NCBI GenBank assembly: GCA_016934935.1
Contig: JAFGRW010000054.1
Location: 81,900 to 145,899 of the forward strand
Reading direction: 5' to 3'
DNA from: Spirochaetota bacterium
GTDB taxonomy: Bacteria; Spirochaetota; UBA4802; JAFGJZ01
DNA length: 64,000 bases
Of this stretch, positions 207 through 63,655 are shown piece by piece (within the stretch, counting starts at the first letter, position 1; each line of letters starts with the position of its first letter). Both the position numbers and the translations under genes were made by a program. The notes beneath the pieces were generated by a model, which saw only the letters and a program-made list of their open reading frames with translations, was not told the origin of the DNA and did not search any database.

Positions 207-3200
207 TTATTGATGAGTAAGAAATACTGCTATTACACCAGTACCGCTTTCCAAGCTGTCCAGCGCTTTACCTATAACCGAACCAACTTTCTCGAAAGAA
301 TCGATTGTTCCTTTCATTGCGCATCCGGGTGTGTCAGATGTAACTAAAAGATCACCCGGTGCAATGGGCTGTGTCCTCGCATCAACCTTGCACATAACTT
401 TGCCGGCAAGAGCGATTGGGTAAAGTTTTGTCTCTTTACCAGAGTTGTTTATAGAGAGTGCGGGTTTCCCGGCAATTATTCCGATAACTGTGCGATCATA
501 AGCCTTATGTGTGCGCTTTAAAAGGCTTGCCCCCTTTTCTGAAGCTATTACAACATCTCCATGCGAGATAAAATCATCGTTTTCAAGTTCAAACATCTCT
601 ACAATATTTGTTGTGGCATCGTTATCTTTGTCATTGTCAATATGAATTACACCATGGAAATGGGATTCTCCTTTAACCTGAAGGGCTTTGCCGTTTCCAA
701 CCATTTTAAGAGATGGATCAATATCATCAATGGATGCGTATCCGTCTACAAGAAGAGAATAGTCGTGTTCGCTAATAAAGACTCCTCCCGGTGCGTTTCT
801 TGATATTCCAAGAACGCCTGCTCCACGAGGGTTTTTTTCATGTCCGGTAGCTTGGCCTCTAATGCCTACAAAATCAGAATGTCCCACAACGCCGTAACCT
901 GAAAATTCATTTTTTTTACTTTTAGAAGGTAGAGCCACTCCGGATACGCCTATGGCTCCTGCTTCCGAAGAGGCGTTTTTTCCGTAAATTATCACTGAAT
1001 TGTCAGATGGCGGGGTTAAGCCTCCGAACACTTCTGCCTTTTCTCCTGAAATTGAGAGAGTACCGCTATGTTCGTTATAGTTGTGATTCTTTTGCGCATA
1101 GTTATGTTCATGATTAAGGGGTTCACGAGCATCGCTTAATCTAGGGTCAGAACTTTGAACCGCAAATTGGGCACGTGATTCGCCATGCTTCGCGAAGCGT
1201 ACGATACCTTTCTCATCTTCGCTGCCGTCATGAAGTCGGGAATCATTTGATTGCACAACAGCACCTTCTGTTGATTCTCCGTCTTTGGCAAGCCTTACTA
1301 TGCCTGCGGTTACTGTTCCGGCGGGTTGTATTCTCTGATCGTCACTCTGAACAGCTTTCAAGGGCGATATCTCACCGTTGTGAGCAAACTGGACAATACC
1401 TTTTTGTTCTTCCGAACCGTCTCTTAGACGGTGGTCGTTTGATTGAACACATTTAAAGGGTGAGTTTTCGCCGTTTTTTGCAAGTTGCACAATTCCCGGA
1501 TAATCTTCTGACGATTTTCGTAAGCGGTCATCATTGCTTTGTACAGCTTTTAGTGGAGATGATTCGCCGTTTTCTGAAAATTGAACTATACCTGTTGTTT
1601 TAGTAGTTGCGTCTTTTAACCGGCGATCATCACTCTGTACAACTCTCTCGGCTGCAATTTCGCCATCCTCGGCCATTTCAACAATGCCCTTATATGTCGT
1701 TGTAGCGTTACGTAATCTTTTGTCGTTGCTCTGTACAACTTTTGACTCAGCAACTTCTCCATCTTCCGCGAGTTCTACAATGCCTTCCGCGACGGTAGTT
1801 GCGCTTTTGAGCCGCTTGTCATTTCCTTGAACGGCTGCAAGGGGTGATTCTTCGCCGTCTTCTGCAAGCCGGACTATACCTTTGTAACTTGTTGAGGCAT
1901 CACGTAAGCGATCATCGTTTGATTGTACGACAGCTCCAGCCTTTATTTCGTTGTTTTCAGCCAGTTCCACGATTCCACGGCTTTCAGTTGAAGCATTCTT
2001 TAAACGTTTATCATTACCTTGAACAGCGGTTAATGGAGAGTCTTCTCCGTCTTCGGCCAGTTCAACAATTCCTTTTGATTTTGTCGTAGCATTTTTAAGG
2101 CGTCGATCATTTGCTTGTACAGCTTTCCCTTCAGCTTCTTCGCCGTCAGCAGAAAATGCAACGATACCCTTTGAAATCTCAGATGCGTCACGCAAACGGC
2201 TGTCATTAGCCTGAACAACAGAGCTGCCTTCGGATTCTCCGTTTTTGGCAAGCCTGACAATACCAAAAGCTGATTCAGTAGCATTTTTAAGGCGAGAGTC
2301 GTTACCACGAACCACTCCAAGCTCAGAGTATGCTCCATCGGGACAAAGTTTTACAATGCCAGAGCTTTTTTCACTCGCATCTTTAAGACGAGGATCTGAT
2401 GCCTGTACTACTGTTCCGGGTTTTATCTCATAATCATATGCCAATTGAACAATGCCTGCTGAAAGCTCCGTAGCAGGTTTTAGTCGTGAATCTGATGCCA
2501 GTATGGCTGTATTTGGAGTTGCTTGCCCGTCTTCTGCGAACTGGACTATCCCTTTGAAGAAGGTTGTTGCATCGCGCAGACGGCGGTCACTGGCTCGAAT
2601 TGCAGCATCACGGCTATCCTCTCCGTCCTTGGCAAAACGAACAAGGCCGGGCTGAAAAACAGAGGCGTACGATGGACCCTCGCTGAATGTATGTGAGTGA
2701 TTAAGCCCTTCGGGCAGAGCATGTATCTCTATATCATGAATAGAGATGAAAAAATTACCTTTTTTAAGTTCGACAGGTGATATCTCGAAACGCAGGTATC
2801 TGGCAGGTATCGAATTAAAATTCCATAAAAAGAGTTTATCACTGTCCGGAAAAAAATGGCGCTGATCAATAACAGCACTCCAAATTCTTTTATCAGCGCT
2901 TACCTCTACAATAAGCTGGCTTGGGCAAGTTGCCAGGTCGGCAGAGGGTTTAAGACCTATTGCGGTAACCGGAGAAACTGTATTAAGGTCAACTACCATC
3001 TCAAGTCGTTCAGGTTTGGTGCAACTTGCACTGAATGGGCTATCTGATCCATCAAAAAGATTGGCCAGCGAGTTTTCTTTTTGATAAGTATCATTTACTT
3101 CGACTGTTGTGATACCACTAATCCCGGCTGTTATATTTTTGATAACAGGAACTTCTCCTGCCGAGTCGTTATAATGAATAAAAAGCTTGATATATCTAAA

Positions 3201-3527
3201 AGTCTTTAGAGGAAAATGCAAGGTATAGTTTTCATCGTTAAGAATAAATCCGTTTTCCGTTTGTAAAATTTGCCAGGCATCATTATCAGAACTTATTTCG
3301 ATGCGAAAATTTTGGGGAAAATTCTCTTGAGCCGATATTTCGATAAAATTTGCATTAACCTCGCATGAAAAATCAAGTATCACAAAATCGAAAGAGCTGT
3401 TACCTTTTCGAGGTTTCCAGACTCCGCTTTCTGAAACCAGGTTTGTAGCGCAATTGGGAGCACTTTCGGAAGATACAGATAAAAGAGCCGCCGGATAGAC
3501 TGATCTGTGGGCAATATTAATAGGCAT
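207..3527 (-). CDS. Large repeat protein: N-terminal F5/8 type C (discoidin)-like region, 16 x 32-aa phage tail-fibre-like repeats, C-terminal tail-spike/fibre-like domain
   Basis: 1106-aa ORF with RBS-like ggag upstream; repeat consensus GIV(Q/R/E)(L/F)AEDGE-x6-VQSNDxRL(K/R)xAT; C-term GDLLVTSDTPGCAMKG...GSVIGKAL. Confidence 0.8.
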   Translation of the reverse strand: MPINIAHRSVYPAALLSVSSESAPNCATNLVSESGVWKPRKGNSSFDFVILDFSCEVNANFIEISAQENFPQNFRIEISSDNDAWQILQTENGFILNDENYTLHFPLKTFRYIKLFIHYNDSAGEVPVIKNITAGISGITTVEVNDTYQKENSLANLFDGSDSPFSASCTKPERLEMVVDLNTVSPVTAIGLKPSADLATCPSQLIVEVSADKRIWSAVIDQRHFFPDSDKLFLWNFNSIPARYLRFEISPVELKKGNFFISIHDIEIHALPEGLNHSHTFSEGPSYASVFQPGLVRFAKDGEDSRDAAIRASDRRLRDATTFFKGIVQFAEDGQATPNTAILASDSRLKPATELSAGIVQLAYDYEIKPGTVVQASDPRLKDASEKSSGIVKLCPDGAYSELGVVRGNDSRLKNATESAFGIVRLAKNGESEGSSVVQANDSRLRDASEISKGIVAFSADGEEAEGKAVQANDRRLKNATTKSKGIVELAEDGEDSPLTAVQGNDKRLKNASTESRGIVELAENNEIKAGAVVQSNDDRLRDASTSYKGIVRLAEDGEESPLAAVQGNDKRLKSATTVAEGIVELAEDGEVAESKVVQSNDKRLRNATTTYKGIVEMAEDGEIAAERVVQSDDRRLKDATTKTTGIVQFSENGESSPLKAVQSNDDRLRKSSEDYPGIVQLAKNGENSPFKCVQSNDHRLRDGSEEQKGIVQFAHNGEISPLKAVQSDDQRIQPAGTVTAGIVRLAKDGESTEGAVVQSNDSRLHDGSEDEKGIVRFAKHGESRAQFAVQSSDPRLSDAREPLNHEHNYAQKNHNYNEHSGTLSISGEKAEVFGGLTPPSDNSVIIYGKNASSEAGAIGVSGVALPSKSKKNEFSGYGVVGHSDFVGIRGQATGHEKNPRGAGVLGISRNAPGGVFISEHDYSLLVDGYASIDDIDPSLKMVGNGKALQVKGESHFHGVIHIDNDKDNDATTNIVEMFELENDDFISHGDVVIASEKGASLLKRTHKAYDRTVIGIIAGKPALSINNSGKETKLYPIALAGKVMCKVDARTQPIAPGDLLVTSDTPGCAMKGTIDSFEKVGSVIGKALDSLESGTGVIAVFLTHQ
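1113..2648 (-). repeat. 16 tandem coding repeats of 96 bp (32 aa each)
   Basis: All 16 units read from the translation are exactly 32 aa, without indels. Confidence 0.9.
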
Positions 3528-13397: not shown

Positions 13398-13514
13398 TTA
13401 TGGTAATCAATAATAATTAATTATTTAACAAGGAACTTGCGAAAAATTCCTTTATATACGGGATTTATATGCCATAGCCGTTCCAGAAATGGTAATTTTT
13501 CGAAGTTCCCTTAT
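13398..13514 (-). repeat. Copy of dispersed structured repeat family (minus orientation)
   Basis: Reverse complement GGGAACTTCGAAAAATTACCATTTCTGGAACGGCTATGGC...AAAGGAATTTTTCGCAAGTTCCTTGTT...GATTACC matches copies at 52.2, 54.0 and 63.5 kb. Confidence 0.75.
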
Positions 13515-52234: not shown

Positions 52235-52309
52235 ATAGGGAACTTCGAAAAATTACTATGTTCCAGAGGGCAACCTAGTTGAAAAGTAAATTCTAGAGGT
52301 TGCCAATAG
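52235..52309 (+). repeat. Copy of dispersed structured repeat family (short form)
   Basis: ATAGGGAACTTCGAAAAATTACTATGTTCCAGAGGGCAAC...GAGGTTGCCAATAG; near-identical start to 63495 copy. Confidence 0.8.
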
Positions 52310-52368: not shown

Positions 52369-52890
52369 ATGAGAAAACTAAGACATGATGAAATAGTAGC
52401 ATTTCAGAAAATTCAGTCTGATAAAAATAGGCGATTTCCTGTTTCTGCTGTTTTGGAGAACATCCGCAGTTTGCATAATGTAGGTTCCATGTTCCGTACG
52501 GCTGATGGCGCAGGATTAAACAAACTTTATCTTTGCGGTTTTACTGGAGCTCCGCCTCGTCCTGAAATTGAGAAAAGTGCTTTGGGAAGCACTGATTATG
52601 TAAACTGGGAACGGCAAGAGGAGACATTAACTTTGATACGGCAACTTAAATCCATGGGTGAACAGATTGTTGTATTTGAACATTGTGAACAGGCGAAGAG
52701 TTATAATCGGATCGAGTACCGATACCCCTGTGTGCTTGTTTTCGGAAACGAAGTGAATGGAGTATCGTCTGAAGTATGCGCTTTGGCGGACGAGACTGTG
52801 CTTATTCCAATGTATGGCAGTAAACAGTCGCTTAATGTTTCAGTATCGTTTGGTATAGGAGTTTACAATGCTATCGCATCTTTGTCCTGA
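52369..52890 (+). CDS. TrmH-family RNA 2'-O-methyltransferase
   Basis: LENIRSLHNVGSMFRTADGAG; LVFGNEVNGVS; IPMYGSKQSLNVSVSFGI. Confidence 0.93.
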   Translation: MRKLRHDEIVAFQKIQSDKNRRFPVSAVLENIRSLHNVGSMFRTADGAGLNKLYLCGFTGAPPRPEIEKSALGSTDYVNWERQEETLTLIRQLKSMGEQIVVFEHCEQAKSYNRIEYRYPCVLVFGNEVNGVSSEVCALADETVLIPMYGSKQSLNVSVSFGIGVYNAIASLS

Positions 52891-53111
52891 TTTCTGGAGC
52901 GGCTATGCCGTTTAAAATATAATAAAAAATTTTTTCGTATTCCCCGTGGGGTTTTTAGCTTGTGCTAAAAGCTTATTGTTCTGATAAGAGCAACCTGCAA
53001 GGACAAGTCCCGCTGCTCACTCGTCCAGCACCACTTTGGAAACACAAAGTGGTGCTGGACTGCTCGCATATGCGCCTGGTTATAACGTTAATTATTAGAG
53101 ATTATCAATAG
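52891..53111 (+). repeat. Copy of dispersed repeat family, right portion, abutting trmH stop, with an additional 16-bp-stem hairpin
   Basis: TTTCTGGAGCGGCTATGCCGTTTAAA...TTGTTCTGATAAGAGCAACCTGCAAGGACAAG...GTTAATTATTAGAGATTATCAATAG. Confidence 0.75.
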
Positions 53112-53125
53112 ACAATTTACCGAAT

Positions 53126-54019
53126 TTAGAATCTTTTTGCACGTTGATGGCAATATGGATACTTGCCATTTTTTTCGTAATATCGTCTATGGTAATCTTC
53201 GGCAGGATAAAAATCTTTGGCAGGAAGTATACTGGTAATCGCGTCTATTCCATTGTTTCTTAATATATTAATTAAGGTTTCGGCAACGACTTTTTGTTTA
53301 TCATCAGTATAAAAAATTGCAGACATGTATTGCTCGCCAATGTCTGGCCCCTGACCATCTTTTTGTGAGGGGTCGTGTATCTCAAAAAAAAGCTCTGCAA
53401 GTTTATTGTAGCTGATTTTTGATGGGTCGTATATGATTTCGACTGCTTCAACATGCCCTGTTTTACCCGAACAAACCTCTTCGTAGGTGGGTTTATCTGT
53501 TTTGCCACCTGTGTATCCCGGCATTGTCGAAACAACACCTTCAATATTCAGGAAATGGTATTCAATGCCCCAAAAACAGCCACCTGCAAAGATCGCCCTC
53601 TCGTAATTCTTGCTGGAATCAGATGTTTTTCCTTTAGTTATTGCCAGATTGTTATCACTTATCTCTTTCAGTGGAATAAACTTCATGGATATTGAATTTA
53701 CACAATGCCTTACGTTTTTGCTGGTAAAGCCCTCCCCTTTAAAGATATGTCCAAGATGCCCACCGCAATTAGCACATACTATTTCAGTTCGCATGCCATC
53801 TTTGTCAGCAATTTCCTGGACTGCGCCTTCTATTTGATCGTCAAAGGAGGGCCAGCCACAGTCTGATTTGAATTTTGCCGTTGATTGGTATAATGGATTA
53901 TCACATTGTTTGCAAACATATATTCCTGGTTCATTAAGATATGTATATTCACCTGTAAACGGAGGCTCTGTTCCTTTTCCAATTATAACATACTTTTCAG
54001 CTTCGGTCAGTTTTTTCAT
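53126..54019 (-). CDS. msrBA: Bifunctional peptide methionine sulfoxide reductase MsrB-MsrA
   Basis: MsrB CGWPSFDDQI, RHCVNSIS; MsrA AIFAGGCFWGIEYHF, MPGYTGG; start refined to ATG 54019 because the ORF upstream is repeat sequence. Confidence 0.93.
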   Translation of the reverse strand: MKKLTEAEKYVIIGKGTEPPFTGEYTYLNEPGIYVCKQCDNPLYQSTAKFKSDCGWPSFDDQIEGAVQEIADKDGMRTEIVCANCGGHLGHIFKGEGFTSKNVRHCVNSISMKFIPLKEISDNNLAITKGKTSDSSKNYERAIFAGGCFWGIEYHFLNIEGVVSTMPGYTGGKTDKPTYEEVCSGKTGHVEAVEIIYDPSKISYNKLAELFFEIHDPSQKDGQGPDIGEQYMSAIFYTDDKQKVVAETLINILRNNGIDAITSILPAKDFYPAEDYHRRYYEKNGKYPYCHQRAKRF

Positions 54020-54029
54020 TTTGTACATC

Positions 54030-54080
54030 CCTTTAAGCGGCATAGCCGTTCCTAAAATGGTAATTTTAGAAGTTTCCTGT
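54030..54080 (-). repeat. Partial copy (left portion, minus orientation) of dispersed repeat family
   Basis: Reverse complement AGGAAACTTCTAAAATTACCATTTTAGGAACGGCTATGCCGCTTAAAGG. Confidence 0.7.
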
Positions 54081-63494: not shown

Positions 63495-63655
63495 CAATAG
63501 GGAACTTCGAAAAATTACAATGTACCAGAGGGCAGCATGGTTTAAGCGCCTATTCTAAAGGAATTTTTCGTGTTACCCGTGGGATTGTTCTGATAAGAAC
63601 AACCTGCAAGGGCAAGTTCCTTGTTGGAAAGTTAATAATTAGAAGTTACCAATAG
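63495..63655 (+). repeat. Longest apparently intact copy of dispersed structured repeat family
   Basis: CAATAGGGAACTTCGAAAAATTACAATGTACCAGAGGGCAGC...TTGTTCTGATAAGAACAACCTGCAAGGGCAAGTTCCTTGTT...TTAATAATTAGAAGTTACCAATAG. Confidence 0.8.

What the first reader, a model, noticed from the sequence alone, without database searches (positions are those of the whole stretch)
63495..63655. Dispersed structured MITE-like repeat family; longest copy
An intergenic ~160-bp unit begins CAATAG|GGAACTTCGAAAAATTAC and ends GTTACC|AATAG. Its ends are imperfect inverted repeats (GG-AACTTCgAAaaATTA versus GGTAACTTCTAAttATTA) and both sides carry AATAG, either a 5-bp target duplication or part of the repeat. An internal stem TTGTTCT-gata-AGAACAA is kept in the 52.9-kb copy as TTGTTCT-gata-AGAGCAA, so one A-U pair becomes G-U. 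Related copies lie at 13398-13514 (minus), 52235-52309, 52891-53111 and 54030-54080 (minus). No coding feature explains it, and five copies in 64 kb suggests many genome-wide.
Basis: seen in the sequence. Interest (0 to 1): 0.75.

Follow-up and report, generated by a model that had tools for sequence, protein, structure and literature searches.

The report
Modular IS5-type mini-transposon in spirochaetes
The repeat is one of about 140 copies of a small, gene-less jumping element in an uncultured spirochaete, probably moved by the enzyme of an IS5-type transposon and built from swappable hairpin modules, a new variety of a known kind of genomic parasite.

Summary
The element at 63500-63650 belongs to a family with 143 left-end matches (control 5) in this 3.75-Mb Spirochaetota MAG and is also abundant in the one held genome of the same genus. 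It is a true MITE. It has imperfect terminal inverted repeats (GGGAACTTCGAAAAATTAC / GTTAATTTTTAGAGGTTGCC). Its target duplication is exactly 4 bp, not 5 (37/55 exact; shuffles mean 7.3, maximum 15). 64 of 66 complete copies are intergenic, and it is absent from the matching sites of the sister species. The right end matches, 19 of 20 bases, the end of a 1.26-kb IS5-family element in another genome of the order, which also has a 4-bp duplication; the same terminus recurs in 44 of 395 Spirochaetota genomes. No such transposase was found in the host MAG or its sister, so the partner there is inferred. What stands out is the interior: interchangeable hairpin modules giving about 21 architectures in 66 complete copies, similar in plan to pneumococcal BOX and Porphyromonas BrickBuilt. 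Some private copies carry perfectly symmetrised hairpins, pointing to template-switch mutation rather than selected RNA function. Verdict: new variant of a known kind, moderate interest.

The parts
63496..63499 (.). left copy of the 4-bp target site duplication, AATA
   Evidence: sequence; 4-bp register established over 55 copies
63500..63650 (+). complete MITE copy, architecture H-A (151 bp)
63500..63518 (+). left terminal inverted repeat GGGAACTTCGAAAAATTAC
   Evidence: 143 genome matches against 5 control
63519..63550 (+). left loop module, H type
   Evidence: module scan
63562..63570 (+). first half of the inner arm that pairs with the left end (AATTTTTCG)
63571..63612 (+). optional cassette A, short form, inserted between the two halves of the inner arm; holds stem 63585-63591 / 63596-63602
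63613..63620 (+). second half of the inner arm (CAAGTTCC)
63631..63650 (+). right terminal inverted repeat GTTAATAATTAGAAGTTACC
   Evidence: family consensus matches the IS end of L174
63651..63654 (.). right copy of the target site duplication, AATA
13402..13510 (-). complete 109-bp copy, P-type left loop, duplication ATAA
52238..52304 (+). short 67-bp copy without the inner arm, duplication AATA; absent from the matching site in G001
52890..53106 (+). copy lacking its left end, with P loop, cassette A (long form) and cassette B
54029..54077 (-). left half of a copy, ending in the P loop

Best explanation
A non-autonomous DNA transposon (MITE) whose ends are recognised by an IS5-family DDE transposase (NCBIfam IS5_4 type), which moves it and leaves a 4-bp duplication in A/T-rich intergenic targets. 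The minimal element is a 67-109 bp hairpin-rich DNA. Its interior has diversified by gain, loss, exchange and tandem repetition of self-paired hairpin cassettes that sit as branches on a common trunk; template switching during replication is the likeliest way such hairpins arise and stay perfect. Shown: inverted repeats, 4-bp duplication, copy number, intergenic location, absence at matching sites, shared termini with a real IS5-family element in the order, modularity. Inferred: that this transposase, or a relative, mobilises the family in this genus; the chemical mode of movement (not tested); template switching as the source of modules.
For: 143 left-end matches against 5 control. 4-bp duplications 37/55 exact in G000 (shuffle mean 7.3, maximum 15) and 16/22 in G001 (mean 2.4, maximum 8), not 5 bp. 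Unlinked copies 97-99% identical to the consensus, most with matching flanks, imply fairly recent movement. Three window sites lack the element in G001, and G001 has its own degenerate copy where the window has none. L174 carries an intact 339-aa IS5_4 transposase (E 2.5e-76) between GGGAACCTCTAAAAATTAAC and its inverse, flanked by TTAA; this end matches the MITE right end at 19 of 20 bases. L165 holds a transposase C-terminus followed by the same right end. Terminus found in 44/395 Spirochaetota genomes, control near zero, up to 149 hits in one genome. Short 67-bp copies keep duplications, so most of the interior is dispensable for movement.
Against: No full-length IS5_4 transposase was found in the host MAG (89% complete) or the sister MAG (97%); repeated IS elements often drop out of MAGs, but the partner may be extinct there. 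The left end differs from the IS terminus at several positions. G001 is too diverged (about 72% identity in aligned blocks) to show base-exact empty sites.
Confidence: 0.9

Rival explanations
1. A structured non-coding or cis-regulatory RNA family that spread because of an RNA function (terminator, stabiliser, processing signal).
For: Stems are kept with several compensatory pairs; predicted folds are more stable than shuffles (z -1.9 to -4.0); copies are intergenic.
Against: No strand preference between co-directional genes (12 against 11) and no enrichment between convergent genes (13 against 24 divergent). G-U against A-C single changes in the cassettes are 22 to 12, and even in the trunk. 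No Rfam match at gathering level. Perfectly symmetrised private copies suggest a mutational origin of the pairing.
Confidence: 0.07
2. The cassettes A and B are separate mobile elements that inserted into the MITE at hot spots (nesting).
For: Each cassette is a discrete insert at a constant junction.
Against: In the inspected genome-wide matches the cassettes lie inside MITE context, not free-standing; the junctions show no clear target duplication and cassette B has no inverted-repeat ends; B occurs as head-to-tail arrays of up to five units.
Confidence: 0.08
3. REP/BIME-type palindromes spread by a tyrosine (RAYT) transposase.
For: High copy number, intergenic, palindromic.
Against: Terminal inverted repeats and a fixed 4-bp duplication are signs of a DDE transposase; the shared terminus belongs to an IS5-family element.
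Confidence: 0.02
4. Chance similarity of A/T-rich spacers.
For: Intergenic DNA here is A/T-rich.
Against: 143 against 5 control matches; dozens of other copies at 72-94% identity with E-values down to 1.5e-38.
Confidence: 0.001

Closest known systems
BOX elements of Streptococcus pneumoniae and S. suis (PMC3049150)
   Same: Modular hairpin-rich MITE-like repeats with fixed ends and a variable number of tandem internal modules; alternative end modules in S. suis; inverted repeats and target duplications.
   Different: Different host phylum; here the ends are tied to IS5-family elements with a 4-bp duplication, and at least five kinds of internal module combine, one interrupting an arm of the trunk hairpin. 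Sequence relation to BOX was not tested.
BrickBuilt MITE of Porphyromonas gingivalis (PMC4596501)
   Same: MITE with inverted repeats close to those of IS5-family elements and an internal tandem array, intergenic.
   Different: BrickBuilt has a 23-bp minisatellite between fixed leader and tail, 19 copies, duplications of uneven length, ends GAGACCTTCGCA; here 44-65 bp hairpin cassettes, several module types, about 140 copies, a strict 4-bp duplication, ends GGGAACTTCG.
IS5-family insertion sequences (NCBIfam NF033581, transpos_IS5_4) of Spirochaetota, such as L174
   Same: Terminal repeat GGGAACCTCTAAAAATTAAC and 4-bp duplication.
   Different: About 1.26 kb and codes for a transposase; the MITE shares only the ends.

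Membership tests
MITE | terminal inverted repeats | tested here: met
   left GGGAACTTCGAAAAATTAC and right GTTAATTTTTAGAGGTTGCC, imperfect; pair counts L:R
MITE | target duplication of constant length | tested here: met
   4 bp, 37/55 and 16/22 exact against shuffles
MITE | short, no transposase gene | tested here: met
   67-302 bp (to 397 bp in G001)
MITE | high copy number, dispersed | tested here: met
   143 left-end matches on many contigs
MITE | insertion differences between related genomes | tested here: met
   window loci lack it in G001; base-exact empty sites not obtainable
MITE mobilised by an IS5-family transposase | ends shared with an IS5-family element | tested here: met
   right end 19/20 to L174, transposase NF033581 E 2.5e-76
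MITE mobilised by an IS5-family transposase | same duplication length as that element | tested here: met
   TTAA at L174; 4-bp duplications readable at several other spirochaete IS5 elements
MITE mobilised by an IS5-family transposase | transposase present in the same genome | tested here: inconclusive
   none found in G000 or G001, but both are incomplete MAGs
MITE mobilised by an IS5-family transposase | transposase acts on the element | not testable with these tools
   needs an excision or transposition assay
BOX element | boxA and boxC end modules by sequence | not tested
   only the plan was compared, from PMC3049150
BrickBuilt | ends GAGACCTTCGCA / TGAAAGGTCTC and a 23-bp repeat | tested here: not met
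   ends differ from those printed in PMC4596501; cassette unit is 44-65 bp
Rfam RNA family | match at gathering threshold | tested here: not met
   only one hit, far below threshold and outside the element

The most novel reading that the evidence does not exclude
The family is a natural record of how structured mobile DNA grows: replication template switching makes and perfects hairpin branches, transposition copies each new architecture around the genome, and recombination between copies shuffles the branches, so elaborate conserved folds with compensatory changes arise without selection on RNA.
Probability: 0.35. Interest if true: 0.6.

Novelty: new variant of a known kind. Interest (0 to 1): 0.4.

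Why it matters
It adds an abundant modular MITE to a phylum for which the keyword searches here showed no comparable report, and ties it to one IS5 sub-lineage whose terminus recurs in about a tenth of the sampled Spirochaetota genomes. It also warns that compensatory changes in a repeated hairpin are not proof of RNA function, because individual copies show whole arms rewritten to match the opposite arm. The many copies and two species make the birth and shuffling of BOX-like modules testable by comparison. It breaks assemblies too: by my count about 15 contig ends of this MAG lie in or near copies.

Tried and rejected
5-bp duplication: rejected, the fifth base is at background. Reading the cassettes as independent elements: rejected. 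The tail GATTACATGATGG... shared by several contig ends looked like cargo but is the end of a chemotaxis-receptor-like gene on C55 joined at contig ends, probably an assembly artefact. The host MAG's own PF01609 proteins do not carry these ends. G-U against A-C bias as a test of RNA strand: inconclusive. Phage and plasmid collections: no match. The viral-contig scan failed twice, the machine gave no answer. Failed calls of wrong format or length: 13, 23, 55, 58, 81.

Full report
OBSERVATION. The element lies at 63500-63650 and is flanked by AATA at 63496-63499 and 63651-63654. A DNA search of the host genome (a Spirochaetota MAG, 3.75 Mb, 138 contigs) gave 59 matches. The 18-base left end gave 143 matches with up to 3 mismatches, against 5 for the reversed control. 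Targets are A/T-rich, AATA and ATAA being commonest.

HOST. The phylum is taken from the named relatives: the exact 19-base left end in the genome collection hit, apart from one contig, only the MAG 'Spirochaetes bacterium isolate GH29', which fits the one held genome of the same genus, G001. That G001 and GH29 are the same genome is an inference from contig counts and sequence, not a lookup.

ANATOMY. Consensus core, 109 bp: GGGAACTTCGAAAAATTAC, a loop module, AATTTTTCG-CAAGTTCC (an inner arm that pairs almost perfectly with the left end; 11 departures in 416 cells), a spacer, then GTTAATTTTTAGAGGTTGCC. The left loop is either H (CATGTTCCAGAGGGCAACATGG) or P (GGAACGGCTATGCCGTTTAAA). Cassette A (42 or 66 bp; the long form holds an extra stem GCTTTTA/TAAAAGC) sits between the two halves of the inner arm, so the trunk can still pair and A becomes a branch. 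Cassette B (about 65 bp in this species, 44 bp in the sister, with different apical stems) sits between the inner arm and the right end and occurs in one to five tandem units. Further modules C and D occur mainly in the sister species. A simple scan gives 21 architecture strings in 66 complete copies here and 21 in 31 in the sister; these strings depend on my mismatch limits and count degenerate copies too, so the exact number is soft. In the inspected matches cassettes A and B lie in MITE context, not free-standing.

MOBILITY. 64 of 66 copies are intergenic although about 77% of the fetched loci is open reading frame, and the element shows no strand preference between co-directional genes (12 against 11). 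The region of the sister species that matches 44-64 kb of the window (L203, about 72% identity in aligned blocks) lacks the 63.5-kb and 52.2-kb copies, and also msrAB with the 52.9- and 54.0-kb fragments; it has its own degenerate copy where the window has none. The flanks are too diverged for base-exact empty sites.

PARTNER. PF01609 proteins of the host genome do not carry these ends. In G005 a transposase C-terminus is followed by GAATTTTTAGAGGTTCCC. Searching 395 genomes of the phylum with that fragment found L174 (G019, same order): an intact 339-aa protein, NCBIfam transpos_IS5_4 at E 2.5e-76, inside a 1.26-kb element with end GGGAACCTCTAAAAATTAAC and flanks TTAA. The MITE right end, read inward, is GGCAACCTCTAAAAATTAAC: 19 of 20 identical. 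Several other spirochaete IS5 elements with ends GGGNACCTCTAAAAA also show 4-bp duplications. The terminus GGNAACCTCTAAAAATTA (1 mismatch) occurs in 44 of 395 genomes, up to 149 times, control near zero; some of these are MITEs with other interiors, such as a 120-bp one in G015 flanked by ATAT. A direct search for IS5_4 found no full-length gene in the host or sister MAG.

STRUCTURE. Stems of A and B keep 95-96% of pairs, with compensatory changes above shuffles on most measures. This need not mean RNA function. Private copies exist in which one arm matches the other perfectly where the family consensus does not: B in L084 (24-bp perfect stem), A in L203 (19 bp), and a perfect 21-bp stem in module C of L154. 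Template switching during replication makes such changes and can create and maintain hairpins (PMC8794818). I take it as the likeliest source of the hairpins; that is inference.

COMPARISON. The plan resembles BOX of pneumococcus (PMC3049150) and BrickBuilt of Porphyromonas, itself linked to IS5 ends (PMC4596501). No report of this family turned up in the library searched, and Rfam has no match. The kind is known; the family, its host and its number of exchangeable modules are not described in what I could search.

Noticed in passing
window 52890-54077: The msrAB gene (53126-54043, minus) lies between two broken, inverted parts of the MITE, both ending at the palindromic P module; the gene and both parts are absent from the matching place in the sister genome. 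Suggests inversion or gene capture through MITE copies.
   Followed up: partly
L137 (JAFGPS010000035.1), 238 and 3181: A 3.3-kb contig filed under a Sedimentisphaerales MAG carries two copies of this spirochaete MITE, so it is probably a misbinned spirochaete contig.
   Followed up: no
window 207-3527 (-): An 1106-aa protein with many 32-aa repeats (GIVxLAxDGExxxxxAVQxNDxRLxDA), the 96-bp DNA periodicity; looks like a tail-fibre or surface repeat protein.
   Followed up: no
L116, L121, L126 (G015) and L104, L120 (G005): Other MITE families share the IS5 terminus but have different interiors, for example a 120-bp element with a long G/C-rich hairpin and duplication ATAT.
   Followed up: partly
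contig ends of G000 (for example L012, L013, L016, L028, L029, L043, L057, L066): About 15 contig ends lie in or near MITE copies, so the family breaks the assembly and the copy count is a lower bound.
   Followed up: no
L210, L219, L225 and L257: Contig ends join MITE cassette B to the end of a chemotaxis-receptor-like gene on C55; probably an assembly artefact.
   Followed up: partly
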